From NCBI RefSeq assembly GCF_015694705.1, contig NZ_JADQDR010000001.1, positions 62,001 to 126,000 on the forward strand: 64,000 bases of DNA, in the 5' to 3' direction. Shown here in pieces: positions 1 to 64,000 of this stretch. The translations under genes and the position numbers were made by a program. Source of the DNA: Pontibacter rufus (GTDB lineage Bacteria; Bacteroidota; Bacteroidia; Cytophagales; Hymenobacteraceae). The notes beneath the pieces are model-generated. The model was not told the origin of the DNA. It worked only from the letters and a program-made list of their open reading frames with translations, and did no database searches. The first letter of the stretch is position 1. The number at the start of each line of letters is the position of its first letter.

Positions 1-366
1 GTATAGCTGATGTATAGCAACAGCTTTTGCCGCTACGCGTGATGTATGGGATGCCTGGCCAGCTTTGCCGGATGTTACTGCGGAAGATACATGTAAAGGA
101 AGAGAGGTAATAAGGCAGTAAGCTATTCTCAAGTACAAAACAGCAGCAACAAAGCTTTGTCGCTCACATCCTGCCATTCTGAAAACAGCCTGTGCATTAC
201 CGGTTGTCCGCCCGAAGTATGATTTTCAGGATTACAGAATTAAAAAACATATACCTGCCTGATGTTACCGGCACTTACCAGGCAGCAACAGCGGCTCAAG
301 TATAAACCAGTGCCTTACAAACTGCCCCACTCATAATTATGAGCAGGGCAGCGATGTATGTATCTC
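1..366. other. Intergenic stretch, nothing recognised
   Basis: No coding region with convincing composition is visible on either strand. One copy of the AAGTATA word lies near position 299. No terminator, tRNA or repeat was recognised. Confidence 0.5.
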
Positions 367-804
367 TTATCTACGGCGGCGTTCATCATCCCAGTACTCG
401 TCGCGGGGTGGACGGCGATCATTCCGGTGGTGTGACATAGAGGGGTCTTGTTGCCAGCGATCGTTGGCATGCTGGTTACTGCTATGGAAATGCACATCCT
501 GCTGCCGCCATATAGGTGGCCTGTCCTGATGCTCCTGCTGCCGGTCATCATACTCCTGCCTGCGCTGATCGGGTTGCCACTCGTGGCGGTTGTGCAGGCG
601 TCCTTCTCCGGGCGGATGGTTTTCCTCGTGCGAGCGCCACTCATTCCGGCGTGAAAATAGCGGTGCCGGATCACCCCAGCGGCTCCTGAAATCATGAAAA
701 TGATCATCCTCATATGGTTGCCGTTCATCTCTTCTTTGCTGCTGCTGGTATTCCCAATGACGTGGGTGGCGTGGATCGCGTGGATCGTTTTCGTGGTACT
801 GCAT
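367..804 (-). CDS. Hydrophilic, probably disordered protein (145 aa)
   Basis: I do not recognise a catalytic family. The protein is dominated by Arg, Gln, His, Asp and Pro, has no signal peptide or membrane segment, and ends in a run of arginines. Such composition suggests an intrinsically disordered protein. A short RWGDPA segment near residue 45 recalls the SWFGD-type proteins of Bacteroidota, but weakly. It lies downstream of a second protein of similar character on the same strand, and a strong terminator separates the two, so they are probably separate transcripts. The ATG at 804 is the first start in frame. The opposite strand is open for 68 codons here, but the amino-acid make-up of this frame and its paralogous neighbour favour the minus strand. 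A stress or desiccation role would be inference only. Confidence 0.6.
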   Translation of the reverse strand: MQYHENDPRDPRHPRHWEYQQQQRRDERQPYEDDHFHDFRSRWGDPAPLFSRRNEWRSHEENHPPGEGRLHNRHEWQPDQRRQEYDDRQQEHQDRPPIWRQQDVHFHSSNQHANDRWQQDPSMSHHRNDRRPPRDEYWDDERRRR

Positions 805-900
805 GTGTGTTAGATTAGGTACAACAATACTTTTGGTGATTTATACTTGTTTGTACGACATGACAGGGAGGATGTTTGAGTGAACGGGCAGCAGTGCATA

Positions 901-936
901 AAAAGGAAAGCCGGCTCTACGCCGGCTTTCCTTTTT
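901..936 (-). terminator. Strong intrinsic terminator
   Basis: Arms AAAGGAAAGCCGGC and GCCGGCTTTCCTTT flank a short loop. A run of A on one side and T on the other makes it able to work in both directions. It lies just after the stop of the 986-1795 gene and most likely ends that transcript. Confidence 0.85.
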
Positions 937-985
937 AATTTAAAATCTACTATCAAAATTACCTAATCTGAGGTGCTATACGGTA

Positions 986-2795: not shown

Positions 2796-5700
2796 TCACG
2801 CTGATGTAACAGCTGCCACACCCAAGCCTTCAAATACTTCCTTCGCCTCCTGTATACTTCGGATGTCCTCCACGGTCACGACCAGTTTGTGCTTGGCTTC
2901 TTTCAGGCGGGAGCGGCGCGAATGCTGCTGCACATACTTGAGGATGTTGCCAAACGTGTCGGACTGGAAGTAGGCATCGTTGTTTTCGGACGGAATATAG
3001 CCTTTCATCACTTCTTTTTTGATGGTAAGCTTTTCGAAGCCAAGTTGCTGGGCCTGCCAGCGCAGCTTTACAATATCTACCAGCTTCTGCACCTCTTCGG
3101 GCAACGGACCGAAGCGGTCTACGATGCTGTCGCGCAGCTTCTCCAGTTCCTGCAAATCTTTGGTGCTGTCGAGTTTGCTGTAGAGACTCAGGCGCTCGGA
3201 AATATTGCTCACGTACCAGTCCGGTATCAGCACTTCCATATCGGTTTCAATACTACACTCACGCACCGGTTCAATAAACTGCTCCAGGTTGTCTTTCAGG
3301 AACAGGTCTTTGAATTCAGTTTCTTTGAGTTCTTTGATGGCATCGTCGAGCACCTGGTGGTACATCTCAAAACCGAGGTCGGTGATAAAGCCGCTCTGCT
3401 CGCCACCCAGCAAGTTACCCGCTCCCCGGATGTCCAAATCGCGCATCGCAATCTTAAAGCCTTCGCCCAGGTCCGAAAATTCTTCGAGCGTGCTTAGGCG
3501 CTTGCGGGCATCGCTTGGCAAACCGGCCACCGGCGGCGTGAGCAAATAGCAATACGCCTTTTTGTTGGAGCGCCCCACTCGGCCGCGCATCTGGTGCAGA
3601 TCCGAAAGTCCGAACATGTGTGCGCGGTTGATGATAATGGTGTTGGCGTTTTCGATATCAAGGCCCGATTCGATGATATTGGTACTGACCAGCACATCAT
3701 ACTCGCCGTTCACGAACTTCATCATGCGCTTTTCAAGCTTCTCGGGTTCCATCTGGCCGTGCGCGTAGGTTACCTTGGCATCGGGCACGTGGCGCAAAAT
3801 CATGGCGGCAATCTCTTCGATGTCTTTGATGCGGTTGTGCACGAAAAAGACCTGTCCGCCGCGCTTCATCTCGTACACCACGGCATCGCGAATCAGTGTT
3901 TCGTCGAACACGTGCAGCTCTGTTTTGACCGGCTGGCGGTTGGGTGGTGGCGTGGCAATCACGCTCAGGTCGCGGGCGCCCATCAGCGAGAAGTGCAGCG
4001 TACGCGGAATCGGTGTGGCCGTGAGCGTGAGCGTATCCACGTTGATTTTCATCTCGCGCAGCTTTTCCTTTGTCTTCACGCCGAATTTCTGTTCCTCGTC
4101 CACAATCATCAGCCCCAGGTCTTTGAACTGCACATCTTTGCTCACGATGCGGTGCGTGCCAATCAGAATGTCGATTTTGCCTTCTGCCAGTTTCTTTAGC
4201 GTTTCTTTGGTATCCTTGGCGGTTTTAAAGCGGTTGATATAATCCACGGTTACCGGAAACTGCTCGAGCCGTTGGTGGAAGGTGCGGTAGTGCTGCATGG
4301 CCAATATGGTCGTGGGCACGAGCATGGCGACCTGCTTGCCGTCGCAGGCGGCTTTAAAGGCAGCACGTATGGCCACCTCGGTTTTGCCGAAACCCACGTC
4401 GCCACACACCAGGCGGTCCATCGGGTGTGGCTGCTCCATGTCGGCCTTCACATCTTCAGTGGCTTTGCCCTGGTCGGGGGTATCCTCGTAAATAAACGAC
4501 GACTCCAGCTCCGCCTGCAAAAAGCCATCGCGGGTATACGCATAACCTGGCGCGGCTTTGCGCTTGGCGTATAAGCTAATCAGCTCGTGCGCAATGTCTT
4601 TAACCTTGCTCTTGACCTTCTTCTTTTTGTTTTCCCACTCCGGCGAACCCAGCTTGCTCATACTTGGCGGACCGCCTTCTTTGCCGCTATACTTGCTTAT
4701 TTTGTGCAGCGAGTGGATGCTGACATACAGCAGGTCATCGTCGCGGTACACCAGCCGGATGGCTTCCTGCAAACGGCCACCCACTTCCACTTTCTCCAGC
4801 CCGGCAAAGCGGCCGATACCGTAATCCACGTGGGTTACATAGTCGCCGGGCTGCAGCGAACGCAATTCTTTCAGCGTCATCGCCTTGGATTTGGAATGTC
4901 CTTCTTTGGCCTTGTGCTGGTAAAAACGGTCGAACAGCTGGTGGTCGGTGTAACAGGTAATTTTTAGCGTCTGGTCGATGAAGCCTTCGCGCAATGAAAC
5001 CGGCAGGTGCTGAAACCGCACGTCGTGGTCCAGCTCATCAAAAATCATGGTGAGGCGGTTTATCTGGCGCGGCGAATCGGTGGCGATGATATTCACAAAG
5101 CCATCGCCCTGCTGCTCGTGCAAGTCCTTCACCAGCCGCTTAAAATCTTTGTTAAACGAGGGTTGCGGCTTGGCCTGCAACTGTATAACCTCGGCACTTT
5201 TAAAGTAAAAACGCTTGCCGATTTCGATGACGTTGAAGTTATCCAACAGCTTTTTAAACTGCTTTTGCGTCTGAAACAATTGCTCCGGGTCCGACACAAT
5301 CTGGGTACCACCGCTGCCGGCCAGCATCTTTTCAAACGCAAACGAAGCCTTTTCAAAATATTCCTCAATCACGTCCAGCGTCAGGCGAATATCCTTGAAC
5401 CAGATGTTCGTGTTTTCGGGCAGGTAATCCAGGAAAGCCTCACGGGTTTCCTGCAAGAGCTTAGTTTGTACGTTTGGTATAATCGAAATCGCTTTCTTCG
5501 TCTCCACGCTCAGCTGCGTATCGGGGTCGAAGGTGCGGATGCTTTCAATCTCATCGCCGAAGAGTTCGATGCGGTAGGGTAGGTCGTTGGCGTAAGAGTA
5601 TACATCTACGATGCCGCCGCGTACGGCATACTGGCCGGCCTCGTACACAAACTCGGTGCGCTCAAAGCCATACTCGGCCAGCATCTCGCTCAGGAAAGCC

Positions 5701-6269: not shown

Positions 6270-6657
6270 CTACAAGATAATGTTTTATCAGAACTGTAAT
6301 GAGGGGGAGAAGGTTGCGTAGTGCTAAAAGAAGGATTGTTGATTTAAATAATCATAAACATATTACCGGTTAACTCAGAGTTATCTTAACAATATATAGG
6401 AGTTGAGCCTAGTTGTTAACAGTGTCTTGCCTCTATTTATGTGTCTTAGTTTATCTTCGTGTTTCCCTCTTGGCTTTCCTTTGTGTTTTCATCTTGTCTT
6501 ACCTTGTATGTAATGTAATATCATAAGTTGTCTTGAGAACATGCTCTAGATAAGACTTATTATCTAATTATTTCTTATAGTCTTGTATGAAGCAGGATAG
6601 ATGTATATGACACGGGTTTTGGGGCGGCCTATTTTTTAATAAAATCTTCTTCCCGTC

Positions 6658-6688
6658 TTGTTTCCTATTCATATGCCTTATATCTTTG
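6658..6688 (+). promoter_or_regulatory. Bacteroidota-type promoter of the orphan gene
   Basis: TTG at 6658-6660, a 20-base spacer, then TATCTTTG at 6681-6688 match the TTG-N19-21-TAnnTTTG consensus of the Bacteroidota primary sigma factor. The expected transcript start is about 6694-6696. This makes the ATG at 6711 a better start for the following gene than the ATG at 6699. Confidence 0.7.
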
Positions 6689-6698
6689 TGATACATTA

Positions 6699-7608: not shown

Positions 7609-7638
7609 AAACATGGTTTGGTGTCGTATACTTCATAC

Positions 7639-8235: not shown

Positions 8236-8237
8236 CG

Positions 8238-23622: not shown

Positions 23623-23685
23623 AAGTATAGCAAAGTATAAACAGGATTCTATACCACAAGCAAGTATAGCGCATCCAAAGTATAA
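23623..23685 (+). repeat. Cluster of four AAGTATAR words before mutS
   Basis: AAGTATAG at 23623 and 23662 and AAGTATAA at 23633 and 23678 lie within 65 bases, ending 7 bases before the mutS ATG. This is the densest group of the over-represented AAGTATA word in the window. Its role is unknown. Confidence 0.75.
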
Positions 23686-23692: not shown

Positions 23693-26320
23693 ATGAAAGC
23701 AGAAAGCACAGGCACCGTTACCCCGCTGATGAAGCAGTACAACGCCATTAAGGCGAAACATCCGGGCGCGCTGTTGCTGTTCAGGGTAGGGGATTTTTAC
23801 GAAACGTTTGGCGAGGACGCGGTCAAGGCCAGCAAGATACTGGACATTGTGCTGACCAAGCGTGGTGCAGGCTCGCCCTCGGAAGTGGCGCTGGCCGGTT
23901 TTCCGCATCATTCCCTCGACACGTACCTGCCCAAACTGGTGCGGGCCGGGGAGCGTGTGGCCATCTGCGACCAGCTGGAAGACCCGAAATCAGTGAAAGG
24001 CATTGTGAAGCGCGGCGTAACGGAGCTGGTAACGCCGGGCGTGTCGTTCAACGACCAGGTGCTGGAGCGGCGCAGCAACAACTACCTGGCGGCTGTGCAC
24101 TTTGGCAAAATGGAAACAGGCATTTCCTTCCTGGATATTTCTACCGGCGAGTTTATTGCAGCCCAAGGCGACAAAAGCTACATCAGCAAGCTGCTGCAAA
24201 GCTTGTCCCCGGCGGAAGTGCTCTTCAGCAAACGCGAAAAAGACACGTTCACCGACCGCTACGGCCCCGACTTTCGCTATTATGCGCTGGAAGAATGGGT
24301 TTTCAAGTATGATTTCGCCTACGAATCGCTCACACGCCAGTTCAAGACCACCTCGCTTAAAGGCTTCGGTATCGAAGGAATGCAGGAGGCGATTATTGCG
24401 GCGGGCGCTATCCTGCATTATTTATCTGAAACGCAGCACCACGAAATCAGTCATATCGCCACTATTTCGCGCCTGGAGGAAGACAAGTATGTATGGCTCG
24501 ACCGCTTTACGGTGCGCAACCTGGAGCTGCTGTTTCCGCAGCACCACGAGGGCGTGCCGCTGATTCAGGTACTCGACCAAACCGTAACGCCGATGGGCGC
24601 GCGCCTGCTGAAAAAGTGGGTGGTGTTGCCGCTGAAAGATGTGGCCCAGATTCGGCGCCGCCTGGATACGGTGGAAGCTCTGACAAGGAACCCGGAACTG
24701 CTGGACGCGCTGACACAACACCTCAAAAATATAAACGACCTGGAGCGCCTTATCTCAAAGGTAGCCGTACGCCGCGTGAATCCGCGCGAACTGATGCAGC
24801 TGGCCAAAGCGCTGGATGCCATCGTGCCTATTCAGAATGCACTGGCGCTGAGCGATATTCCGGCCCTGCAAAAGCTGGCGGCGCAGCTGGCGCCCTGCGA
24901 CGGCCTGCGCGAGGAAATCAAAAACGTGCTGAAGCCGGATGCGCCCATGCTCGCTAACCAAGGCAACATGATAAACGACGGCGTGGATGCCGAGCTGGAT
25001 GAGCTGCGCACCATCGCCTTCTCCGGAAAAGATTACCTGGCGCAACTGCAACAGCGCGAAGTAAAGAATACCGGCATCAGCTCCCTCAAAATCGCCTTTA
25101 ACAAAGTATTCGGATATTACCTGGAAGTAACGCACGCGCACAAAGACAAAGTGCCGGCTTCCTGGATTCGCAAGCAGACCCTGGTAAATGCGGAGCGCTA
25201 CATTACGGAGGAGCTGAAAACCTACGAAGAGAAAATCCTGAATGCCGAAGACCGCATCTATACCATCGAGTTCAACCTGTTTAATGAATTGGTACTGCAG
25301 GCGCTGGATTATGTGGCGCAGGTGCAGCAGAATGCCAAGGTTATCGGTGTAATCGACTGCCTGAGTTCTTTTGCCGGAATAGCGCTGACCAGCAGGTATG
25401 TGAAGCCGGAGGTAAGCGACAGTCATGTGCTCGACATCAAAAAGGGCCGCCACCCGGTTATTGAAAAGCAGTTGCCGCTGGGCGAAGCGTACGTGCCCAA
25501 TGATATTTTCCTGGACAACGAAGAGCAGCAAATCATCATCATCACGGGCCCGAACATGGCCGGTAAAAGTGCCCTGCTCCGTCAGACCGCTTTGATTGTG
25601 CTGATGGCCCAGATAGGCTCCTTTGTGCCGGCAGAAGCGGCCAGCATCGGTATTATCGATAAGATATTTACCCGTGTGGGCGCTTCGGACAATTTATCAA
25701 AAGGCGAGTCGACGTTTATGGTGGAGATGACCGAAACAGCCAGCATCCTCAACAACCTCTCAGACCGCAGCTTGGTACTGATGGATGAGATTGGTCGCGG
25801 CACCAGCACCTACGACGGCATTTCGATTGCCTGGGCCATCGTGGAGCACCTGCACAACCACCCCAAGTATAGAGGGAAAACGCTGTTTGCCACACACTAC
25901 CACGAGCTTAACCAGCTGGCCGAAGACCTGCCGCGCGTAAAAAACTATAACGTGTCGGTGCGCGAGGCGGGCGGCAAAATCCTGTTTATGCGCAAACTGG
26001 TTGAGGGCGGCAGCGAGCACAGCTTCGGCATACACGTGGCGCAGATGGCGGGTATGCCGAACAGCGTGGTGCTGCGTGCCGACGAAATCATGCACCACCT
26101 GGAGCAGGAAAAAGTATCGGAGCAGGCGCCGCAGCAGCGCATGAAATCGGTCCCGAAAAGCAATTACCAGCTCAGCATGTTCGAGCTGAACGACCCGCAA
26201 CTGAGGCGTATGAAAGAGCTGATGGAGCAGCTGGACATCAACACCATTACGCCGGTGGAAGCGCTGCTAAAGCTGAACGAACTCAAGCTGCTGCTACAGG
26301 ACAAGCCGGAAAAAGTGTGA
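23693..26320 (+). CDS. mutS: DNA mismatch repair protein MutS
   Basis: MutS binds mismatches and starts repair with MutL. The 875-residue protein has the N-terminal mismatch-recognition domain with the Phe-X-Glu motif in GDFYETF near residue 34. The connector, core and clamp domains follow. The ATPase has Walker A GPNMAGKSALLRQ near residue 620, KGESTFMVEM near 670, Walker B LVLMDEIGRGTSTYDG near 692 and THYHELNQL near 735. The C-terminal part has a typical dimerisation helix. The start is the ATG at 23693. A weak hairpin follows the stop. Confidence 0.98.
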   Translation: MKAESTGTVTPLMKQYNAIKAKHPGALLLFRVGDFYETFGEDAVKASKILDIVLTKRGAGSPSEVALAGFPHHSLDTYLPKLVRAGERVAICDQLEDPKSVKGIVKRGVTELVTPGVSFNDQVLERRSNNYLAAVHFGKMETGISFLDISTGEFIAAQGDKSYISKLLQSLSPAEVLFSKREKDTFTDRYGPDFRYYALEEWVFKYDFAYESLTRQFKTTSLKGFGIEGMQEAIIAAGAILHYLSETQHHEISHIATISRLEEDKYVWLDRFTVRNLELLFPQHHEGVPLIQVLDQTVTPMGARLLKKWVVLPLKDVAQIRRRLDTVEALTRNPELLDALTQHLKNINDLERLISKVAVRRVNPRELMQLAKALDAIVPIQNALALSDIPALQKLAAQLAPCDGLREEIKNVLKPDAPMLANQGNMINDGVDAELDELRTIAFSGKDYLAQLQQREVKNTGISSLKIAFNKVFGYYLEVTHAHKDKVPASWIRKQTLVNAERYITEELKTYEEKILNAEDRIYTIEFNLFNELVLQALDYVAQVQQNAKVIGVIDCLSSFAGIALTSRYVKPEVSDSHVLDIKKGRHPVIEKQLPLGEAYVPNDIFLDNEEQQIIIITGPNMAGKSALLRQTALIVLMAQIGSFVPAEAASIGIIDKIFTRVGASDNLSKGESTFMVEMTETASILNNLSDRSLVLMDEIGRGTSTYDGISIAWAIVEHLHNHPKYRGKTLFATHYHELNQLAEDLPRVKNYNVSVREAGGKILFMRKLVEGGSEHSFGIHVAQMAGMPNSVVLRADEIMHHLEQEKVSEQAPQQRMKSVPKSNYQLSMFELNDPQLRRMKELMEQLDINTITPVEALLKLNELKLLLQDKPEKV

Positions 26321-32054: not shown

Positions 32055-33881
32055 CTATTCTACCTCCAAGTACTTTCGGCTCAACACCCATTTTTCCATT
32101 GGCTTTCTGGACACGGAGTCCGTTAAATACTTTTCTATCATCAGGCCTGCAATTGGCGCGGCCGATTGTGCGCCGAAACCGGCGTTCTCTACATAAACCG
32201 CAATTGCTATCTTGGGATTCTCGCGCGGCGCAAAGGCGACAAACACAGCGTGATCTTTGCCCTGCGGGTTTTCGGCGGTGCCGGTTTTGCCACACACCGT
32301 AATCCCCAGCTTCTCGAGGTTGGCGTTACGGCCGGTGCCGGAGGCCACCACATCGGCCATACCCTGTATTACAGGCTCATAATATTTCTTGTCGATGGTG
32401 GTATGATGCTGTTCTTCATACTGCGGCAGCGGATGCCCGCTGTTGCCAATCGATTTGATCATGTGGGGCGTAATATAGTAACCCCGGTTCGCCATAATAG
32501 CCATAAAGTTAGCCATCTGCAGGGGGGTTACGCCGAGTTCTCCCTGGCCAATACTGAGCGAGTAAATGGTTGAGAACTTCCAGCGGTTCTTTCCATACAT
32601 ATCGTCATACATACCCGGTGAGGCAATGATTCCTTTTTTCTCGTTCGGCAGATCTACGCCCAGCTTTTTGCCGAAGCCCATGCTCAGAATTTGCTCCCGC
32701 CAGTGCGCCAGACCCAGCGATGTATCTTTGTAGGTATTCCGTGATCGGCCCTGGTTAACCTCTGCCCGAAACGCCTGGTAGAAGTATGGATTGCATGAAT
32801 ACTTGATGGCAAGCGCCAGGTTAGACGGAGCGGGGTGGCCGTGAGCGCACTTTATCAGGCTTTGGTTGCAGGGGAACCCTGTTTCGGGTGTAATAATGCC
32901 ATCCTGTAAAGCAACCAGTGCCTGCGCCAGCTTAAAAATAGAGCCCGGCGGGTTGCTGCTCGCCATAATAGGCCGGTTAAAGAGCGTCTTGTTCGAATCG
33001 GTGAGCAGCGCCATGTAATTTTTGCCGTAGTCTTTTCCTGTAAACAGGCTTGGGTCATAAAAAGGCGCAGAGATGTAAGCCAGGATCTCGCCGGTGGCCG
33101 GCTCAATCGCCACTACGCTTCCCTTGGCGCCGTTCATCAGAAACTCGCCATACTCCTGCAGGTCCAGATCGATGCTGCTGGTCAGGTTCTGGCCTGCTAC
33201 CGAGAGGGTATCATAGGCGCCGTCTTTAAACGAGCCTTTCTCGATGCCGCGCACATTCACCATTTTATACTTCACACCGCGGCTGCCCATCAAATACTTT
33301 TCATACTCCAGCTCGATGCCGCTCTTGCCAATGTAGTCGCCGGGACGGTAGCCGGTGTAGGCCGGGTCATCCAGCTGTTTGGGGCTGATTTCGGCAATAT
33401 AGCCAAGCGCATGCGCCAGGCTGGCCTGCGGGTAGCCGCGCGCCGTGCGGGCGTTGATAAAAAAGCCGGGAAAATCTATCAGGTTATCCTGGATGTGGGC
33501 GAACTCCTGTGTGCTCAGCTTCTGATAAAAAGCAGAAGGTTGTACGTACGAAAAAGCGCGGGCTTTTCTGAAGCGCTCCCGCACGTCTTCGAGCGGCAGG
33601 TTAAGCAGGCGGCAAAGGCGCAGCGTGTCTACGTTTTTGGCCTCCTTGGGGATCAGCATCAGGTCGTATACCGGCGTGTTCTGCACCAGCAGTTTGCCGT
33701 TGCGATCGTAAATCAAACCCCGGAAAGGATACTGGATAACGGTTTTGATGGCGTTGGTTTCAGCCGCCTGTTTGTAGCTGCTGTCTACCACCTGTATGTA
33801 AAAAAGGCGCAAGGCAAAAAGTGCTCCTATCAGCAGAAAGATGCCTTGTATAACGTATTTTCGATTCTCTAAGTAGTTCAT
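32055..33881 (-). CDS. mrdA: Penicillin-binding protein 2 (MrdA)
   Basis: PBP2 is the transpeptidase of lateral-wall growth and is paired with RodA. The 608-residue protein has an N-terminal membrane anchor (residues 9-30) and the dimerisation region with FRGLIYDRNGKLL. Its transpeptidase domain has the SxxK motif in GSIFK near residue 313, the SxN motif in YSCNPYF near residue 364, and KTGTAE near residue 531. The gene begins directly after mreD (ATG at 33881, mreD stop at 33882), and rodA follows. The order matches the conserved Bacteroidota cluster. Confidence 0.97.
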   Translation of the reverse strand: MNYLENRKYVIQGIFLLIGALFALRLFYIQVVDSSYKQAAETNAIKTVIQYPFRGLIYDRNGKLLVQNTPVYDLMLIPKEAKNVDTLRLCRLLNLPLEDVRERFRKARAFSYVQPSAFYQKLSTQEFAHIQDNLIDFPGFFINARTARGYPQASLAHALGYIAEISPKQLDDPAYTGYRPGDYIGKSGIELEYEKYLMGSRGVKYKMVNVRGIEKGSFKDGAYDTLSVAGQNLTSSIDLDLQEYGEFLMNGAKGSVVAIEPATGEILAYISAPFYDPSLFTGKDYGKNYMALLTDSNKTLFNRPIMASSNPPGSIFKLAQALVALQDGIITPETGFPCNQSLIKCAHGHPAPSNLALAIKYSCNPYFYQAFRAEVNQGRSRNTYKDTSLGLAHWREQILSMGFGKKLGVDLPNEKKGIIASPGMYDDMYGKNRWKFSTIYSLSIGQGELGVTPLQMANFMAIMANRGYYITPHMIKSIGNSGHPLPQYEEQHHTTIDKKYYEPVIQGMADVVASGTGRNANLEKLGITVCGKTGTAENPQGKDHAVFVAFAPRENPKIAIAVYVENAGFGAQSAAPIAGLMIEKYLTDSVSRKPMEKWVLSRKYLEVE

Positions 33882-46921: not shown

Positions 46922-49522
46922 TTACACTGCCTGTGCTTTGCGTTTGCTGCCAAGCTTTACGCTTGGTTTAGGCGCCGTCTTAGGGCCATCCTGGCTGCGG
47001 CGCACAATGGCCATGATAAAGCCGATTGCCATAATTAAAGTGCCTATCCACAGTATGTTCACGAAGGGTTTTTCCATTGCCTTCAGGATTATCCATTCGC
47101 GCTGCGTGGTGTTTACGCCAATCTTAAAGCTTTCGGTAGCGGGGTCTATGTTCAGGAGCGTAACACGCAGGCCTAAATCGCCGATTTCCTCGGGGTAATA
47201 ACCGGCCATGCCATCCTTGAAAATAAGCAGCGGATGTACGTGGTAATTTTTCGTTTCGCCCAGAATCTGCATGTCTGCCTGCACCGCGATATCGCCCTGC
47301 TTCAGTTCCACACCCGGCACCTTGTTCACCATCTCCACGCCATGGAAAACAGCAATGTAATCGTTCAGGATAATGGTGTCGCCCATGGCAATATCATACT
47401 CTTTCATGGTGCTCCACTCTTTTTCTTCCGGCGCAATAGACGATACGTGGGTATACAGGTCTCTGTCTATAAAGCTTTTGATAGCTGGGGAAGCCAGCAG
47501 GCCCATGTTCGGGTTTACCTGTGCGCGTGGGTACAGCAGGAATGCCTTGCCGCTTTCGCGGTTCTTATACTCCAGTTCGTAGTAGGTGTTTTCCGGGGAG
47601 CTCAACTCCAGCGTATCGCCTGTTTTATAGTATACTTTGTCGCCTGCTTTTACATCGGCACGGGCAATGGCTTTATATGGATCAGCCGTGCGGAAAAGTA
47701 TCTCCTGGTTTACGTAGCCTGGCACGCCCGCCACCTCAAAAAACTTGCCGCGGTAACTTACACTATACTTGTCCATGTCTACGGGCGTGTTGCGCCACAG
47801 GAGCACGTTGTCGCGGTTTACCTCATCCGGAAACTCGCGGGAGTATAACAGGCCGGAAGTGTTTTGGGAGATGATCTTGGAATAGCCCGACGAGAAAAGT
47901 ATACCTATCAGCATCAAAGCAATGCCGATATGCGATACGGCACCACCGGATAAAGCCACCTTTTTGTGTATCAATCCAAGTATAATGCTCAGGTTGGCAA
48001 ACACCGAGAAGAGCGAGGCTATCAGCAGGGTAATGTAAACCCAGTTATCCAGCTTAAAGGGTAGGATATCGAATTTGTTGGACAGGATGATGATAAGGCT
48101 GGAGAACAGCAGCGTGAGCATGGCCGGCATGGTGATGGCATCCACAAAGCTGGCTTTGTCTACTTTGCGCCACCACAGCAACTGGGCTATACCTGAAAGC
48201 AGAGCTACCACCAACCCTGCCCACAGCTGGAATTTGGTATAGTGTGCAATCTGGTCGGCGGGCAGTGCGGCGTTTGTGTCGATGCCGATAAAGCCCATAA
48301 ACGAGTTATAGACAGGTATAGACGTGGTAGCCAGCACCTGGAAAGCCGCCAGGCAAAGCACCGCAGACCCTATAAATATCCAGAACTCGCCGTTGTAGGT
48401 GGTCAGTTCTTTTTCTGTAGCCGGAATCTTTTTCCAGTTGTATACCAGCAAGCCAATGGCCAGCACCGCAAATGCGGCCAGGTAGGTAAATAACTGCCCC
48501 GATAAACCAAGATCTGTAAAGGAGTGCACGGAGGCGTTTCCTAAAATACCGCTTCGGGTAAGGAAGGTAGCATAAAGCACCAGCAAAAAAGTCGTAATCA
48601 CCAGTATAAAGCTGGCGCGCAGGCCCTGTCGGCTGCGGCGGTAAGCCACCATGGTATGAATAGCGCCTACCAGCACCAGCCACGGAATGTACACAGCGTT
48701 CTCTACGGGGTCCCAGTTCCAGTAGCCGCCAAAGTTCAGGGTTTCGTAGGCCCAGTAAGCGCCCATTACCACACCCACGCCCAACGTTACGCCGGCAAAG
48801 TGCGCCCAGGGCAGGGCAGGCTTAATCCATTCTGTAAACTTACCTTTCCAGAGGCCGGCCATGGCAAAAGCAAACGGCACCAGCGTAGCAGCAAAGCCCA
48901 GAAACAGGGTTGGCGGGTGAATCACCATCCAATAGTTCTGCAGCAGCGGGTTCAGGCCGGTACCGTCCTGAGGTACGTAGTTCGGGTCCATCTGAAACAC
49001 AGGGGCATCGGCCATAAAGTCGCGCATCAGAATGAAAGGCGAGGAGCCGATTTTTACATCGCCCAGCACCACACCTAGGATCATGGAGGTCAGGAAGATT
49101 TGCACAAACGAGAACATCGCCATCACAGGCGCTTCCCATTCTTTACGCTTTTTGCCTACATTCATCAGCATCACTCCCAGCATTACATGCCAGAAAATCC
49201 AGAGCAGGAACGAGCCTTCCTGACCTTCCCAGAAGCAGGAAATCATGAAGTGAATGGGCAGGTGGTTGGAGGAGTGGCTCCAGGCGTAATAATACTCGTA
49301 GCGGTGCGCATAAATAATGTTGAACAGGCTGAAGATAATCATCAGCACGGCCGCGCCATGTACGTAAAATGCGCCACGCGCCAGGTTGCGCCAGCTGGTA
49401 TCGCCGGATATTTCTACTTTGGCGCGCGCCGCCATAAAGTAAGCGAGCGAGGATACTATGGCTGTTACAAAAGCCACAATCACACTGGCATGGCCAATAT
49501 CCCCAATCAGCGTATTTATCAT
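46922..49522 (-). CDS. ccmF: Cytochrome c haem lyase CcmF
   Basis: CcmF transfers haem from CcmE to apocytochrome c. The 866-residue protein is a long multi-membrane protein with the tryptophan-rich WWD motif GGYWNWDPVENA near residue 269 and the haem-contacting HPPTLFLG near residue 202. HYTKF-like stretches follow. The C-terminal part includes a large periplasmic segment (about residues 590-820) and a last helix. The length fits the fused CcmF of Bacteroidota. It is the last gene of ccmB-C-D-E-F; a word-repeat hairpin separates it from ccmE. Confidence 0.95.
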   Translation of the reverse strand: MINTLIGDIGHASVIVAFVTAIVSSLAYFMAARAKVEISGDTSWRNLARGAFYVHGAAVLMIIFSLFNIIYAHRYEYYYAWSHSSNHLPIHFMISCFWEGQEGSFLLWIFWHVMLGVMLMNVGKKRKEWEAPVMAMFSFVQIFLTSMILGVVLGDVKIGSSPFILMRDFMADAPVFQMDPNYVPQDGTGLNPLLQNYWMVIHPPTLFLGFAATLVPFAFAMAGLWKGKFTEWIKPALPWAHFAGVTLGVGVVMGAYWAYETLNFGGYWNWDPVENAVYIPWLVLVGAIHTMVAYRRSRQGLRASFILVITTFLLVLYATFLTRSGILGNASVHSFTDLGLSGQLFTYLAAFAVLAIGLLVYNWKKIPATEKELTTYNGEFWIFIGSAVLCLAAFQVLATTSIPVYNSFMGFIGIDTNAALPADQIAHYTKFQLWAGLVVALLSGIAQLLWWRKVDKASFVDAITMPAMLTLLFSSLIIILSNKFDILPFKLDNWVYITLLIASLFSVFANLSIILGLIHKKVALSGGAVSHIGIALMLIGILFSSGYSKIISQNTSGLLYSREFPDEVNRDNVLLWRNTPVDMDKYSVSYRGKFFEVAGVPGYVNQEILFRTADPYKAIARADVKAGDKVYYKTGDTLELSSPENTYYELEYKNRESGKAFLLYPRAQVNPNMGLLASPAIKSFIDRDLYTHVSSIAPEEKEWSTMKEYDIAMGDTIILNDYIAVFHGVEMVNKVPGVELKQGDIAVQADMQILGETKNYHVHPLLIFKDGMAGYYPEEIGDLGLRVTLLNIDPATESFKIGVNTTQREWIILKAMEKPFVNILWIGTLIMAIGFIMAIVRRSQDGPKTAPKPSVKLGSKRKAQAV

Positions 49523-52222: not shown

Positions 52223-52250
52223 GCATGTATAGGCATGTATTATCAAAGTA

Positions 52251-52305
52251 TAATTAAAGTATAAAAGCACGAACCGCTCCGGCCCGTGCTTTTATACTTT
52301 AATTA
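52251..52305 (-). terminator. Strong terminator of the phosphate cluster
   Basis: Perfect 21-base arms, containing TAATTAAAGTATAAAAGCAC and its complement, enclose a 13-base GC-rich loop. It lies 24 bases after the phoU stop and closes that transcript. The arms each contain the AAGTATA word. Confidence 0.92.
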
Positions 52306-53006: not shown

Positions 53007-53106
53007 GTTTTTTCTGTATGGCTTTGATGATGAGATTTATACTTGTAAACGGGAATGCATACTTCTATAAGTATAAGCAACAATCAAATTATACTTTAGT
53101 TAAATA

Positions 53107-55782: not shown

Positions 55783-55820
55783 CACAAGTATAGCAAACCT
55801 ATACGATTGCTATACTTGTG
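55783..55820 (-). terminator. Stem-loop between pstS and pstC
   Basis: Perfect 14-base arms CACAAGTATAGCAA and TTGCTATACTTGTG enclose a 10-base loop and are followed on the minus strand by TTTAAAATAAAAC. A partial terminator here would give more PstS than PstCAB, a common arrangement for binding proteins. The arms contain the AAGTATA word. Confidence 0.75.
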
Positions 55821-55919
55821 CGGTGATTACTTTATGAGCCTGCAAGCCCTGTTTAACTAAAAGACAAATGAAGTATAAAGCACTTCCTTGCAACGACATT
55901 ATACTTCAGGCTGCTTGCT

Positions 55920-58787: not shown

Positions 58788-61589
58788 ATGAAATTTCTCT
58801 TCACACTTCTCCCTATTATACTTACCACGGCCGTTTCCGTGCTTGCCCAACCAGGTACGCTTAAAGGTAAAATAACCGACAAAAATTCCGGAGAAGGGAT
58901 TATCGGGGCAGTGGTGTTTATAAGAGGCACATCCAATGGCACTACCACTGATTATGAGGGTAACTATATGCTGCCGCTGGCGCCGGGCACTTATACAGTA
59001 TCGGTTACTTTCGTTTCTTATAAGTCTTCCGAAAACGCTGGTGTTATCATCACGGGCGGTCAGACCACCACGCTTGATGTGCCGCTGGCAGAAAATACCA
59101 CCGAGCTACAGGCTGTGGAGATTGTAGGTGCGCGCCACACCAACACAGATTTAGCGCTGATGCAGAGTATGCGTGCAAGCGAGGTGGTGGTAAGCGGCAT
59201 GGCTGCCGAGCAGATTGCCAAATCCATGGACCGCGACGCGGCCGCTGTGGTGCGCCGCATTCCGGGTGTAACCGTGATGAACGACAAGTACATCGTGATC
59301 AGAGGTATGAACCAGCGCTACAACACGGTGCTGCTCAACGACGCGCTTGCGCCCAGCACCGAACCCGATACGAAAGCTTTTTCTTTTGATGTGCTGCCTA
59401 CGAGCGTGATAGACCGCATCATGATTTATAAAAACGGCTCACCGGAGTTGCCGGGCGAATTTGGCGGCGGCATCATTAAGATATATACCAAGAGTATGGT
59501 GGACGAGAACAGCACCTCGGTCAGTTTGTCGGGTTCATACCGGGCAGGCACTACGTTCAGGAATGGCTTTCTTACTTCGCAGGGCGGCAAAACAGACTTT
59601 ATCGGCTTCGACAACGGCGGCCGTTCGCTGCCAGCCGGTTTTCCTGCCAGGGTAAATGCCAGCAGTACCCCGGACGGGTCGGAGAACCCTGGGCACAAGT
59701 TGCCAAACACCTGGGCTCCCGGAAGTATAAGAGCCCTGCCTGACCTGCGCTTTTTGCTGGGCTTGAACCGCCGCTTCGATGTAGGCGGTGTGCGGTTGAG
59801 CAACATTTCGGCCGCTTCCTACACCCGTACCACTACCTATACCGAAGGCTCCCGGGATTCTTATGGCGCTTACCGGCCCGAAACAGGTGCCAAACCAGAG
59901 TATAAGTTCCAGGATAAAATCTATACGCAAAGTGCCCGCATAGGGCTTGTGCATAACTGGACAGCCCGCCTCAACAATAACAACAAACTGGAATTCCGCA
60001 ATCTGTTTAACCAGATGGGCAGCAGCGAGGTACTCATGCGCTCCGGGGAGGACTATGAAAATGGGGAAGATGTGAAGAACTATGCTCTGCGTTACGAGAG
60101 CCGCACCATTTATACCAGCCAGCTGCAGGGCACCCACGACCTGAATGATGGCAACACCACCCTTACCTGGACAGGTGGTTACGCCTACTCCAACCGCAAT
60201 GAGCCGGACTACCGCCGTTTCCGGACAACACGCAGTCTCGGTTCTGAAGAGCCCTTTATACTTACTTACAAAAATACGCCGAGCTTAAACGATGCCGGCC
60301 GTTATTATGCCAAACTAAATGAAAACAGCTTTACGCTGAATGGCCAGGCCGAGCACCGCTTCAGCACAGCAGATGCTGCGGCTGAAAACACCCCTAAAAT
60401 CAGGGCGGGTTTTTATGCCGAGTGTAAGAACCGCGACTTCAGTGCCCGCTTCTTTTCTTATCGCCCGGCTAACACCGAGAAGTTCGACAACAGCCTGCTG
60501 ACGCTCCCTTTTGACCAGGTGTTTGTCCCAGAAAACATTAACGCCACAACCGGCTGGGAGTTGGTGGAAGACTACAATCCGCAAAACAATTACAAAGCAT
60601 ACAATACCTTGCTGGCAGTTTATGTTGGAGGCGTCTTGCCGCTGACACCTAAATTATCGGCATCCGGGGGCTTGCGCGTGGAGCATAATAACCAGGAACT
60701 ACAGGCAACGAACTTCGATGGCACGGCGCTTAGCCGCTCAAACAGTGTACTAAGCGTGCTGCCGTCTGCCAACTTTACTTACGCGCTTAACAAGCGCAGC
60801 ATGCTGCGCGCCGGGGCAAGTATAAGTGTGAACCGCCCTGAATTTCGGGAACTGGCGCCCTTCATGTACTATGATTTTGTGAACCTGCTGGAAGTAAGCG
60901 GTAACCCTGATCTACAGACGGCCACCATCTTCAACACCGATCTCCGCTACGAGTTTTACCCGAATCCCACAGAAATCCTGTCGCTGGGCGTGTTCTACAA
61001 GTACTTCAGCAAGCCTATCGAAACCGTGTTTGAGAATACGAGCGGCGGCAACAGCATTACTTCCGAAAATGCCCAATACGCCACCAGCTATGGCGTGGAG
61101 GCAGAAGTTAAAAAATCGCTGCTGAATTTATCGGAATCGAAATTTGTACAGAACCTGTCGCTGGTGTTGAATGCCGCCCTGATAGACAGCCAAGTAAAGC
61201 TGAGCGACAGAGACGCCGCCAGCCAGGACCAGAACCGCGTGATGCAGGGGCAATCGCCTTACGTGGTAAATACCGGCGTTTATTACCAGGATGATAATGC
61301 GAAGCTACAGTTCAGCTTGCTCTACAACGTGGTGGGGCAGCGCATTTTCGCCGTAGGCAACAACCTGCGCCAGACCGTGTACGAGCTGCCTAAAAACGTG
61401 ATTGACCTGTCTGTAACCAAAGGCTTCGGGAATTTTGAGCTCAAAGCGGGTGTCCAGGACATCCTGAACCAACAGACTCGCCTGATGCTGGATCTGGACC
61501 GCGATGGCAAAATAACCGAAGTAGATAAGTCTTTCCGCAGGTTCCGCCAAGGCCAGTACAGCACCCTCGGCCTGACCTATACATTCTAA
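58788..61589 (+). CDS. TonB-dependent receptor with carboxypeptidase-like domain
   Basis: The 933-residue protein begins with a signal peptide (MKFLFTLLPIIL, cleaved near VLAQPG). A carboxypeptidase-regulatory-like domain covers about residues 22-105 (GTLKGKITDKNSGEGIIGAVV). The plug follows (SMDRDAAAVVRRIPGVTVMND, VIRGMNQRYNTVLLNDA, EFGGGIIKIYTK). The barrel extends to the C-terminus, ending YSTLGLTYTF with a terminal Phe. Such receptors take in scarce large solutes using TonB energy. The gene is divergent from the phosphate block, and a lipoprotein gene follows 37 bases downstream, replacing the usual SusD. The substrate is unknown. Confidence 0.95.
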   Translation: MKFLFTLLPIILTTAVSVLAQPGTLKGKITDKNSGEGIIGAVVFIRGTSNGTTTDYEGNYMLPLAPGTYTVSVTFVSYKSSENAGVIITGGQTTTLDVPLAENTTELQAVEIVGARHTNTDLALMQSMRASEVVVSGMAAEQIAKSMDRDAAAVVRRIPGVTVMNDKYIVIRGMNQRYNTVLLNDALAPSTEPDTKAFSFDVLPTSVIDRIMIYKNGSPELPGEFGGGIIKIYTKSMVDENSTSVSLSGSYRAGTTFRNGFLTSQGGKTDFIGFDNGGRSLPAGFPARVNASSTPDGSENPGHKLPNTWAPGSIRALPDLRFLLGLNRRFDVGGVRLSNISAASYTRTTTYTEGSRDSYGAYRPETGAKPEYKFQDKIYTQSARIGLVHNWTARLNNNNKLEFRNLFNQMGSSEVLMRSGEDYENGEDVKNYALRYESRTIYTSQLQGTHDLNDGNTTLTWTGGYAYSNRNEPDYRRFRTTRSLGSEEPFILTYKNTPSLNDAGRYYAKLNENSFTLNGQAEHRFSTADAAAENTPKIRAGFYAECKNRDFSARFFSYRPANTEKFDNSLLTLPFDQVFVPENINATTGWELVEDYNPQNNYKAYNTLLAVYVGGVLPLTPKLSASGGLRVEHNNQELQATNFDGTALSRSNSVLSVLPSANFTYALNKRSMLRAGASISVNRPEFRELAPFMYYDFVNLLEVSGNPDLQTATIFNTDLRYEFYPNPTEILSLGVFYKYFSKPIETVFENTSGGNSITSENAQYATSYGVEAEVKKSLLNLSESKFVQNLSLVLNAALIDSQVKLSDRDAASQDQNRVMQGQSPYVVNTGVYYQDDNAKLQFSLLYNVVGQRIFAVGNNLRQTVYELPKNVIDLSVTKGFGNFELKAGVQDILNQQTRLMLDLDRDGKITEVDKSFRRFRQGQYSTLGLTYTF

Positions 61590-61626
61590 ATCAGACAAAC
61601 AACTCAAATTTAAAATCTAAGAAAGT

Positions 61627-62985
61627 ATGAAAAAGCTATTGAATTTAATATTGGTGGCCTTTGTAGTTAGCCTTGTTGCCTGTAACAACGAAGATGACAA
61701 CAATACGCCGACGCCTGCAGGTACGGCGTTTACCACGTCACAGTCTAATGGAATGACGGTGGTGTCCGGCTCTACAGAAGAAGACTTCACCATGATGGCG
61801 GATAAGAAATATCTGCTAAACGGGTTCGTGTCTGTAAAAGACGGCGCCACGCTGACCATAGAACCGGGCACCGTGATCATGGGCGACAAAGACTCTAAAG
61901 GGGCCCTGATAATTGAGCGTGGCGGTAAAATTATGGCCAATGGGACTGCTGCCAAGCCCATTGTCTTCACTTCGGCACAACCGGCGGACCAGCGCAGGCC
62001 AGGCGACTGGGGCGGCGTGATTATACTTGGCAAAGCGCCCGTAAACCTGGGTGCCAACGCTAAAATTGAAGGCGGGGTAGACCGCGAGTACGGCGGCACC
62101 GACGCCAACGACAACTCCGGCTCTCTAAAGTATGTACGCATTGAGTATCCTGGAATTGCATTTCAGCCCGACAACGAGATCAACGGTCTGACTCTGGGCG
62201 GTGTTGGCGCCGGTACAACCATCGACTACGTGCAGGTGTCTTACAGCGGCGACGACTCTTACGAATGGTTTGGGGGCACCGTAAACGCCAAACACCTGAT
62301 TGCCTACAGCACCGTGGACGATATGTTTGACACCGACAACGGCTACTCTGGCAAACTGCAGTTCCTGGTAGGCATCGCTAACCCGGCACTGGCTGACGTA
62401 TCGGGCTCCAATGGTTTCGAATCTGACAACGATTCCAAAGGAACAGATGCAACGCCGCAGACTTCTGCCGTGTTTTCTAACGTGAGCTTGTTTGGCCCGC
62501 GTGCTACTGCTGCCTCAACTTTTAACGAGCAGTTTGGCCGGGGCCTGCATATTCGTCGAAACAGTGCCATCCAGGTATACAATACAGTGGTGGCGGGCTG
62601 GCCGACAGGCCTTCTGCTGGATGGTGCCGCTACGCAGGCAAACGCTACTGCCGGTAAGCTTAAAATACAAAACACAGTTATCGCGGGAGCTCCTGCCGGC
62701 AAAGAACTAACCGTAGAGAAGGATGGGTCTTATGATGTGGTTACCTGGTTCAACGCATCCGGCAAAGCGAACACCATCGTGGCAGATAACGCTGCCTTGG
62801 GCCTGGGCGGAGCATTTTTCTCTGCTAACGAGCCAGACTTTACAACAGCTGCACAACTGCAGGCAGGCGCCAGTTTCACAGGCTTAGACAGCTTTTTTGA
62901 GCAGGTAAATTATATCGGCGCTTTCGGCGTAGAAGACTGGACCAACGGCTGGGCCAATTTTACGCCGAACAGCACCACCTACTAA
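61627..62985 (+). CDS. Surface lipoprotein with right-handed beta-helix fold
   Basis: The 452-residue protein has a lipoprotein signal peptide with lipobox SLVAC (Cys19), followed by NNEDDNN, an acidic stretch like the surface-export signals of Bacteroidota. The rest is a repetitive Gly/Asn/Asp-rich sequence with parallel-helix features: GATLTIEPGTVIMGDKDSK, RGGKIMANGTAAKPIVF, GDWGGVIILGKAP and EYPGIAFQPDNEINGLTLGG. No catalytic site is evident. I read it as a cell-surface binding protein paired with the TonB receptor just upstream. A terminator follows. Its ligand is unknown. Confidence 0.85.
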   Translation: MKKLLNLILVAFVVSLVACNNEDDNNTPTPAGTAFTTSQSNGMTVVSGSTEEDFTMMADKKYLLNGFVSVKDGATLTIEPGTVIMGDKDSKGALIIERGGKIMANGTAAKPIVFTSAQPADQRRPGDWGGVIILGKAPVNLGANAKIEGGVDREYGGTDANDNSGSLKYVRIEYPGIAFQPDNEINGLTLGGVGAGTTIDYVQVSYSGDDSYEWFGGTVNAKHLIAYSTVDDMFDTDNGYSGKLQFLVGIANPALADVSGSNGFESDNDSKGTDATPQTSAVFSNVSLFGPRATAASTFNEQFGRGLHIRRNSAIQVYNTVVAGWPTGLLLDGAATQANATAGKLKIQNTVIAGAPAGKELTVEKDGSYDVVTWFNASGKANTIVADNAALGLGGAFFSANEPDFTTAAQLQAGASFTGLDSFFEQVNYIGAFGVEDWTNGWANFTPNSTTY

Positions 62986-63590
62986 AGCATGAAAAAATTG
63001 ATTGCACATGTATGGGTGAGACATGCGTTGCAGTCAACAGCGGTACGGCTTAGTCTCCCGTGCTGCACGAAACCCGCCCTGGTGGCGGGTTCTTGTTTTT
63101 AGCTTTCTCGCAAAGGCAAAAGGAAAAGCCTTTAAAAAGAAGGGACATGAATGTGTACGTCGCAGGAGCGAAGCAGGAAGAAATCTAGCACAAGTATAAC
63201 AACCTGCCCTATGCAGCCAATGCCATTGCACCCACCTCTGCCATCTTTTTGTCTGTGCCGCCGGATAGCTTGTTCAGCAAAAATAACCGGAATAAAATTT
63301 TGAACATGCCCCTTATCATTAGATGGAATAAAACACATGCCTGATCTGGAGAGCCTTAATATACGGCGAAAGGAGGCAACGAAAGCATGTCTATTCATGA
63401 TAGCCAAATTTAACACTTTCAGTAAACCGGCCTGTTTAATACCAATATTAAGTCATCTATCTATGCGCATTTAATACTCCATTAATTGGGGAATCTCCAC
63501 TGTTATCTTCCTACCTTAAAGTCAAATACGCACAAGCGGTTTGCTATTGGTATTATCAAAACCTTAAGGCACTACTGTACCTCCTGGTTT
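62986..63590. other. Intergenic region, no gene recognised
   Basis: After the terminator at 63071-63091 there is no coding region with convincing composition. A minus-strand frame of 94 codons (63132-63416) and a 32-codon frame (63209-63307) are not supported by any family or composition signal. Confidence 0.5.
63071..63100 (+). terminator. Intrinsic terminator after the lipoprotein gene
   Basis: Arms AACCCGCC and GGCGGGTT enclose CTGGT and are followed by CTTGTTTTT. It ends the receptor-lipoprotein transcript, 86 bases after the stop. Confidence 0.85.
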
Positions 63591-64000
63591 CTACTTTGCT
63601 GATTGGGCTTTACTCCCATCAGTGATTTTGTCCTTTATATGGAAGTAGTCAAAGTCTACATAGCCGCTTGACGTTTTAGTAGCATAGTTGAACAGGCCAA
63701 AGCGATACCCCATAAAATGTGGCAGGGTGTACTCCATGTGCAGCTGTGAACCTATCTTCTTCCATGTCTTGCCATTAAGGCTATAATAGAAAGTGGCCAC
63801 ATCTCTGCGATCATTAAAATCTCCTTCTGCTTTCAGGTATACCTTTCTTTGATTGAGGGGCACACTTTCCGCTACAACCGGATTACCCGATTCGGCATTA
63901 ACCATCACAATGGATTTAGCGCCGTTCTCATATTTGACGCCAACCAAGCCATACTTTTGCTGCAGGAGGGCAAGACCAGCAAAATCACCCTCTTTCATGT
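63591..64000 (-). CDS. C-terminal part of a GH43-type glycosidase (partial)
   Basis: The gene continues beyond the window, so only the last 136 or so residues are seen. They form the concanavalin-like C-terminal domain found in GH43 beta-xylosidases and arabinofuranosidases: GDFAGLALLQQKYGLVGVKYENG, VYLKAEGDFNDRRDVATFYYSLNGKTWKKIG (in parts) and a closing FGLFNYATKTSSGYVDFDYF. This domain helps form the active site of the GH43 catalytic domain, which lies upstream outside the window. The methionine at 63998 is not the true start. Confidence 0.85.
   Translation of the reverse strand, partial: MKEGDFAGLALLQQKYGLVGVKYENGAKSIVMVNAESGNPVVAESVPLNQRKVYLKAEGDFNDRRDVATFYYSLNGKTWKKIGSQLHMEYTLPHFMGYRFGLFNYATKTSSGYVDFDYFHIKDKITDGSKAQSAK

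What the first reader, a model, noticed from the sequence alone, without database searches (positions are those of the whole stretch)
1..64000. AAGTATA / TATACTT is a highly over-represented word across the whole window
Seen directly: the 7-mer AAGTATA (or its complement) recurs throughout, in genes and gaps, on both strands, often with a following A or G. I counted by eye at least about 80 copies of AAGTATA or near forms. Equal base use would predict about 8 copies of a given 7-mer on both strands in 64 kb. Examples: 2603, 8896, 10222, 15069, 22088, 22312, 31553, 34050, 36596, 38950, 47978, 52246, 53186, 55871, 59722, 60818. Inference: this could be a repeated genome word such as an uptake signal, a Chi-like site, a methylation target or a structural mark, comparable in kind to the HIP1 word of cyanobacteria. 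I know of no description of it in this group.
Basis: seen in the sequence. Interest (0 to 1): 0.75.

Follow-up and report, generated by a model that had tools for sequence, protein, structure and literature searches.

The report
Genome-wide DNA word with species dialects
Chromosomes of the bacterial genus Pontibacter carry thousands of copies of one eight-letter DNA word, spelled differently in different branches of the genus, and it likely serves as a tag by which these cells would recognise and take up DNA from their own kind.

Summary
AAGTATA occurs 97 times in the window (50 +, 47 -) and is its commonest 7-mer; AAGTATAA occurs 4,293 times in the 5.03-Mb genome against 189 for the reversed word. 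Codon and dinucleotide shuffles leave a sixth and a tenth of it. It uses all six frames and both orientations, has random flanks and shows no replication polarity. The genome is a Pontibacter. Of 50 genomes of the genus, 40 are at least 3.5-fold enriched in ARSTATAR; of 100 genomes in five other genera of the family, none exceeds 1.4-fold. Inside the genus the word has dialects that follow the tree: AAGTATAA (20), AGGTATAG (12), AACTATAG (5), A/C mixtures (3), weak or none (10). One mutS column carries each dialect's spelling. Three second replicons and several islands are poor in the word; close copies prefer the hairpin orientation. These resemble DNA uptake sequences, yet no full-length type IV pilus motor gene was found, and no gene tested tracks the word, so the reader protein is unknown. 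Uptake is inferred, not shown; a methylation- or repair-linked word like cyanobacterial HIP1 is the main rival.

The parts
1..64000 (.). 97 copies of AAGTATA (50 on +, 47 on -); all starts are listed in the full report
23623..23629 (+). copy 1 of 4 in the 70 bp before mutS
23633..23639 (+). copy 2 of 4 before mutS
23662..23668 (+). copy 3 of 4 before mutS
23678..23684 (+). copy 4 of 4 before mutS
25865..25872 (+). AAGTATAG inside mutS; the same codon column carries the word in 14 of 20 A-dialect genomes
52246..52252 (+). copy beside the hairpin at 52257
52257..52299 (.). inverted pair AAGTATA...TATACTT capping a G+C-rich stem between genes (terminator-like)
53069..53096 (.). inverted pair in a gap
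55786..55817 (.). inverted pair in a gap, imperfect stem
55871..55906 (.). inverted pair in a gap
2853..2859 (-). copy inside mfd
4688..4694 (-). copy inside mfd
33266..33272 (-). copy inside the PBP2 (mrdA) gene
47631..47637 (-). copy inside the CcmF/NrfE-like gene
47764..47770 (-). copy inside the CcmF/NrfE-like gene
47897..47903 (+). copy inside the CcmF/NrfE-like gene, opposite orientation to the gene
47978..47984 (+). copy inside the CcmF/NrfE-like gene, opposite orientation to the gene
59723..59729 (+). copy inside a TonB-dependent receptor gene
60818..60824 (+). copy inside the same TonB-dependent receptor gene
60257..60263 (-). copy inside the same TonB-dependent receptor gene, opposite orientation

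Best explanation
AAGTATAA is a genome-wide word of Pontibacter chromosomes with branch-specific spellings, and it likely works as a DNA uptake (self-recognition) sequence. Shown: the excess, its independence of frame, strand and replication direction, the dialects, positional conservation with different spellings at one site, scarcity on the second replicons and islands examined, and a preference for inverted close pairs. Inferred: a cell-surface or periplasmic DNA receptor would bind the word on free DNA, so that fragments from kin, which carry it about once per kilobase, are taken up and recombined more often than foreign DNA; mutated sites would then be overwritten by intact ones, which keeps thousands of sites alive and rewrites them when the receptor's preference shifts. 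Because no full-length PilB/PilT/GspE-type motor was found in the genus, the receptor would belong to a pilus-free route such as the one described for Riemerella (Bacteroidota), not to the type IV pilus route of Neisseria and Haemophilus.
For: 4,293 copies against 189; excess survives codon and dinucleotide shuffles; all six frames, both orientations, CDS and gaps; random flanks; enriched at least 3.57-fold in 40 of 50 genomes of the genus, none of 100 in five other genera above about 1.4; three dialects in 37 of 50 genomes plus 3 mixtures that follow the mutS tree; mutS sites kept about twice as often as control 7-mers; one mutS column with AAGTATAG in 3 of 20 A, AACTATAG in 5 of 5 C and AGGTATAG in 10 of 11 G genomes; second replicons 0.27-0.30/kb against 0.85 and 1.25/kb on the chromosomes of two of the three; word-free gaps hold resolvases and defence-type genes; inverted pairs 25 against 8.5 and 9 against 4.0 expected; ComEC in 54 of 54 and HHH_3 proteins in 60 of 60 genomes searched; a pilus-free transformation route is described in Riemerella (PMC8459023).
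Against: No transformation or uptake data for Pontibacter were found. No tested gene tracks the word: ComEC and HHH_3 are also in weak or no-word genomes, DUF5689 is patchy, absent from the own genome and present in four weak-word genomes. The ComEC match carries an in-frame stop in two word-rich genomes, G021 and G040. Sites are not evenly spaced (variance/mean 1.28 and 1.31). The excess of inverted pairs is weak in G001 (P .02), and in the own sample same-direction pairs are also above expectation (16 and 17 against 8.5). Scarcity on acquired DNA would follow from any slowly maintained word.
Confidence: 0.5

Rival explanations
1. A HIP1-like word: a DNA methyltransferase or a methylation-linked mismatch-repair bias creates and maintains the sequence, and dialects follow changes of that enzyme's specificity; no DNA uptake is involved.
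For: HIP1 of cyanobacteria is the other known dense word, is replaced by alternate words in some species, and goes with cognate methyltransferases (abstract of PMC4390886). The word lies in genes and gaps alike.
Against: HIP words are palindromic and G+C-rich; AAGTATAA, AGGTATAG and AACTATAG are neither. A repair-type conversion would deplete one specific one-letter neighbour; of the 24 neighbours of AAGTATAA none is strongly depleted (lowest 7 observed against 14.4), and several are enriched, among them forms of the other dialects. Methyltransferases were not searched.
Confidence: 0.25
2. A structural, nucleoid or other DNA-binding mark of the chromosome, unrelated to DNA uptake.
For: Chromosomal rather than plasmid location; higher density in gaps.
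Against: Gives no reason for dialects inside one genus or for repeated loss.
Confidence: 0.15
3. A Chi-like or KOPS-like orienting site for recombination or chromosome segregation.
For: Length and density are in the range of such sites (recalled).
Against: No replication polarity in G001: 188 of 357 copies in leading-strand orientation; no bias to the coding strand: 134 against 117 and 118 against 115.
Confidence: 0.06
4. A by-product of codon or dinucleotide use, or of a repeat family that carries the word.
For: An order-5 Markov model trained on the window itself expects 84 of the 97 copies. Near mutS the word often stands at the edge of a G+C-rich intergenic repeat.
Against: Synonymous-codon and dinucleotide shuffles leave a sixth and a tenth of the copies; flanks are random in 450 and 357 instances.
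Confidence: 0.02

Closest known systems
DNA uptake sequence (DUS) of Neisseriaceae with dialects (PMC3630211; abstract and outline seen)
   Same: Thousands of copies per genome, single-letter dialects that follow the phylogeny within a bacterial family.
   Different: Other sequence and phylum; no full-length type IV pilus motor gene found in Pontibacter; no uptake data.
Uptake signal sequence (USS) of Pasteurellaceae (PMC2346458 abstract; PMC12616744 listing only)
   Same: Short non-palindromic word in genes and gaps, two or more variants, found inverted near gene ends (the last recalled).
   Different: The published intragenic orientation bias is not seen here (134/117 and 118/115); receptor thought to be a minor pilin there.
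HIP1 of cyanobacteria (PMC4390886; abstract seen)
   Same: Very dense word, replaced by alternates in some species, low or absent in others.
   Different: HIP1 is a G+C-rich palindrome with cognate methyltransferases; this word is A+T-rich and not palindromic; methylation untested.
Pilus-free natural transformation of Riemerella anatipestifer (PMC8459023; abstract, passages and section 20 seen)
   Same: Bacteroidota without pili; ComEC and HHH-domain proteins are also in Pontibacter.
   Different: The phrase 'uptake sequence' does not occur in its main text; its surface pair RS04915/RS04920 was not identified in Pontibacter.

Membership tests
DNA uptake sequence (DUS/USS) | Hundreds to thousands of copies, far above chance | tested here: met
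DNA uptake sequence (DUS/USS) | DNA with the word is taken up or transforms better | not testable with these tools
   needs a transformation assay
DNA uptake sequence (DUS/USS) | Dialects that follow the phylogeny | tested here: met
DNA uptake sequence (DUS/USS) | Inverted close pairs, partly at terminators | tested here: met
   25 against 8.5 (own) and 9 against 4.0 (G001); weak in G001; examples
DNA uptake sequence (DUS/USS) | Scarce in recently acquired DNA | tested here: met
   three second replicons and a few islands only
DNA uptake sequence (DUS/USS) | Read through a type IV pilus or pseudopilus | tested here: not met
   in 50 Pontibacter genomes no full-length PF00437; best 25.9 bits over 60 of 370 positions in a ~650-aa frame, 3 of 50 just over the cut-off of 24.9. 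Hence not filed as a member, only as working like one
HIP1-type word | Palindromic, G+C-rich core | tested here: not met
   sequence
HIP1-type word | Cognate DNA methyltransferase | not tested
Chi / KOPS | Orientation follows replication | tested here: not met
   188 of 357 in leading-strand orientation in G001
Repeat family (REP, MITE) | Conserved sequence beyond the word | tested here: not met
   random flanks

The most novel reading that the evidence does not exclude
The first DNA uptake sequence of Bacteroidota: a self-recognition word read by a pilus-free DNA receptor whose specificity has switched at least twice within one genus, rewriting thousands of chromosomal sites in place, and whose loss in several lineages went with larger genomes.
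Probability: 0.45. Interest if true: 0.92.

Novelty: new variant of a known kind. Interest (0 to 1): 0.8.

Why it matters
The uptake sequences that I know of (recalled) belong to two proteobacterial families that use type IV pili. A dialect-forming word of this density in a genus without that motor, with mixed intermediates and repeated weakening, would give a natural series in which to find the missing outer-membrane DNA receptor of Bacteroidota and to see how a whole genome is rewritten to a new spelling. Even if the function proves to be another one, the word marks native against foreign DNA in these genomes and needs an explanation.

Tried and rejected
Replication polarity: a hint from the place list was dropped, because the listing is ordered by strand (seen); the proper test was negative. 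Repeat family: flanks random. Codon or dinucleotide origin: rejected. Even spacing: not found. Type IV pilus motor: no full-length match in 50 Pontibacter genomes. ComEC, HHH_3 and DUF5689 (22 of 50 Pontibacter genomes) do not track the word. In four of the DUF5689 loci (G018, G038, G044, G046) the gene stands beside ~1080-aa and ~490-aa proteins that look to me like a SusC/SusD pair, by order and length only. Neighbourhoods of comEC (7 genomes) and of the ~315-aa HHH protein (12 genomes) show no gene limited to word genomes. The first count of inverted pairs included overlapping palindromes and was redone without them. G039 was dropped from the mutS tree and counts because its locus is cut short; two further outgroup loci (L190, L191) were not used. 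One note (entry 7) gives the AAGTATAA range in G-dialect genomes as 330-510; the counts are 276-453. Papers: one search found 0; one search found 1 (on LexA); one search found 1 (on Patescibacteria); one search found 92 with at least 3 of 5 terms, of which the 10 listed have no mention of Pontibacter; one search found 1 unrelated. None of those listed describes an uptake sequence or this word in Pontibacter or Bacteroidetes.
Full report
OBSERVATION. AAGTATA stands at 50 places on the + strand and 47 on the - strand. Starts on +: 298, 2620, 6785, 8903, 8970, 10294, 11910, 14931, 15069, 16949, 22088, 22310, 23623, 23633, 23662, 23678, 25865, 28199, 31555, 31846, 34052, 34414, 36596, 36609, 36731, 38949, 40096, 41126, 41703, 41825, 42437, 44469, 46586, 47897, 47978, 50383, 50712, 51721, 52246, 52257, 53069, 53185, 54313, 55786, 55871, 58571, 58656, 59723, 60818, 63192. 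Starts of TATACTT (copies on -): 842, 1925, 2853, 4688, 6872, 7470, 7627, 7700, 10748, 11249, 16586, 17586, 21682, 22624, 23002, 26457, 29372, 29904, 30043, 31633, 31817, 33266, 35305, 39190, 39956, 42383, 44383, 45505, 45837, 46490, 46906, 47631, 47764, 50136, 52293, 53038, 53090, 53162, 55811, 55900, 55994, 56987, 57217, 58344, 58817, 60257, 62022. It is the commonest 7-mer, and AAGTATAA (63) the commonest 8-mer, of the window.

NULLS. Markov models of order 1 to 5 expect 6.5, 10.9, 22.5, 52.4 and 84.2 copies of the 7-mer. The high orders are not independent of the word, since its inner 5- and 6-mers are themselves the most over-represented of their length. On 318 kb of the genome (the window plus 13 stretches), shuffling synonymous codons within genes leaves 42.1 +- 5.6 of 251 copies in CDS, and dinucleotide shuffles of the gaps leave 19.6 +- 4.5 of 192 (100 shuffles each). 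Over the whole 5,025,066-base genome AAGTATAA occurs 2,084 + 2,209 times and the reversed word 81 + 108 times.

ANATOMY. Flanks are close to random outside the word; position 8 is A .55, G .22, C .18, T .05 and position 9 leans to A (.40). In the own sample copies lie in CDS (1.06/kb) and gaps (2.3/kb), 134 with and 117 against the gene, in all six frames (27 to 56 copies each) (genes predicted by my own ORF script). In a near-complete relative (G001, 21 stretches) 188 of 357 copies have leading-strand orientation (summed by hand by the sign of GC skew). Close pairs in the hairpin orientation (7-59 bp, overlapping palindromes excluded) number 25 against 8.5 expected in the own sample, beside FF 16, RR 17 and RF 11; in G001 9 against 4.0, beside FF 5, RR 6 and RF 4. 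Some cap G+C-rich stems near gene ends (window 52257-52299; L015:7362; L033:11862 and 18653). Spacing is not even: variance/mean 1.28 and 1.31, with 6 empty 4-kb bins against 1.0 expected in the own sample and 12 against 6.3 in G001.

ORGANISM AND RANGE. The best named relatives of the window's CcmF/NrfE-like protein are Pontibacter species. In 50 genomes of the genus, ARSTATAR is at least 3.57-fold over its reversed control in 40 and at most 2.83-fold in 10. In 100 genomes of five other genera of the family the ratio stays at or below about 1.4 (read from the table). In the order-wide sample of 291 genomes, 5 of them of this genus, no genome outside the genus exceeds about 2.4-fold for AAGTATAA (read from the table).

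DIALECTS. A k-mer ranking of 20-kb stretches from 14 relatives (20 asked for, 6 contigs too short) put AGGTATAG first among 8-mers in five, AACTATAG in one and AAGTATAA in one (G001). Whole-genome counts then gave AAGTATAA-type 20 of 50 (own genome 4,293; G017 weak with 1,201), AGGTATAG-type 12 (2,823-5,222 copies, with 276-453 of AAGTATAA), AACTATAG-type 5 (6,288-8,208; G015 also has 2,125 AAGTATAA), both words in 3 (G013, G045, G049), and weak or none in 10. One of these ten, G035, carries another dispersed word, TATATA[AG], a possible fourth dialect; G041 and G047 show weak related words, and the stretches of G008, G034 and G030 show none. Named species, from 16-23-kb loci: P. roseus and P. 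virosus G; P. burrus C; P. fetidus C with A; P. arcticus A; P. vulgaris A with some C; P. pamirensis and P. qinzhouensis none. On a mutS codon tree (53 taxa, word columns masked, G039 dropped) the G type is one clade (support 1.0), the C type with G013 and G045 another (0.999), the A type is paraphyletic, and weak or no-word genomes fall in at least four places, some with modest support (0.84-0.999).

CONSERVATION IN PLACE. In mutS of 22 genomes with the A word (19 A-type and the three mixed), word sites are kept about twice as often as control 7-mers with one G or C.17 v .08.31 v .15.30 v .15.57 v .20 and .64 v .36 from the most distant to the closest bin (12, 693, 244, 94 and 28 site comparisons, not independent). 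Of 9 A and 9 C site columns 3 coincide; A and G share 1, C and G share 1 (its P values ignore protein constraint). Column 1682 is the clearest: AAGTATAG with Ser in 3 of 20 A genomes, AACTATAG with Thr in 5 of 5 C, AGGTATAG with Gly in 10 of 11 G, one of each in the three mixed, and no word in 10 of 10 weak or no-word genomes, which use Ser, Gly, Asn or Thr there with other codons. At column 1034 Ser occurs in 6 of 6 genomes with AAGTATAA and in 0 of 43 without it (Gln 40, Asn 2, His 1). So the word goes with changed codons and, at column 1034, a changed residue; these are shared by descent in part and are not independent events. The window's own copy at 25865 is column 2172, which carries the word in 14 of 20 A genomes.

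FOREIGN DNA. Second replicons of two-contig assemblies are poor in the 7-mer: G001 C2 0.29/kb (30 in 104 kb) against 0.85 on its chromosome, G002 C2 0.27 against 1.25 (one 20-kb chromosomal stretch), G020 C2 0.30 (chromosome not sampled). Three contigs of 5.5-5.9 kb have 0, 1 and 0 copies. Other contigs differ: G006 C6 0.45/kb, G022 C3 1.75 and G013 C6 2.65, the last two probably chromosomal. Word-free chromosomal gaps reach 16 kb, where about 23 copies would be expected at the mean density. Families found in such regions (20 proteins scanned) include resolvases, a ThiF/E2-type and a Schlafen-type gene, CAT- and beta-lactamase-family genes, UmuC and S24-peptidase (UmuD/LexA-like) genes and a ResIII helicase, but also ordinary enzymes.

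MECHANISM. The package of many copies, frame and strand indifference, dialects, rewritten sites and scarcity on foreign DNA is that of DNA uptake sequences (PMC3630211, abstract and outline seen). The known readers sit on type IV pili (PMC3868556 and PMC12616744, search listings only), and no full-length pilus motor was found in Pontibacter. Riemerella anatipestifer, also of Bacteroidota and without pili, is transformable through ComEC, DprA, ComF, RecA and proteins of unknown function, among them a predicted surface protein proposed to bind DNA, an outer-membrane barrel and an HHH protein (PMC8459023; abstract, passages and section 20 seen). ComEC matches are in 54 of 54 and HHH_3 matches in 60 of 60 genomes searched, so an inner half of such a route is present, but equally where the word is weak or absent, and the surface receptor was not found. 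Weak or no-word genomes are larger (mean 5.79 against 4.60 Mb, P 3.4e-6 without phylogenetic correction), which would fit a loss of kin-biased recombination but is a correlation. I commit to an uptake or self-recognition word at about even odds, with a HIP1-like methylation- or repair-linked word (PMC4390886, abstract seen) as the main rival.

VERDICT. A genome word with dialects inside one Bacteroidota genus was not found described in the library searched.

Noticed in passing
   Followed up: no
upstream of mutS in many relatives (loci L136-L165): A G+C-rich intergenic repeat (CCCCTCC...GGAGGGGTAGGGGTGGGTT type) recurs before mutS in many species, often with the word at its left edge.
   Followed up: no
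L008, L226, L286, L151 (relative G035): A dispersed word TATATA[AG], 6.1/kb in gaps and 1.1/kb in CDS, in a genome that lacks the other three words: a possible fourth dialect.
   Followed up: partly
L024:1956-18210 (own genome, contig C7): A 16-kb stretch without any copy of the word, with two resolvases, a ThiF/E2-type gene, a Schlafen-type gene and a CAT-family gene: looks like an acquired island.
   Followed up: partly
relatives G021:C1:2771217 and G040:C76:160505: The ComEC match carries one in-frame stop in each of these word-rich genomes; pseudogene or assembly error not decided.
   Followed up: no
50 Pontibacter genomes: Genome size falls with word enrichment (Spearman -0.61), and the ten weak or no-word genomes average 5.79 Mb against 4.60 Mb.
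   Followed up: partly
window 23623-23684: Four copies of the word within 62 bp directly before mutS, the densest cluster of the window by eye; most relatives have one to four copies in the 200 bp before mutS, G008, G034 and G035 none.
   Followed up: partly
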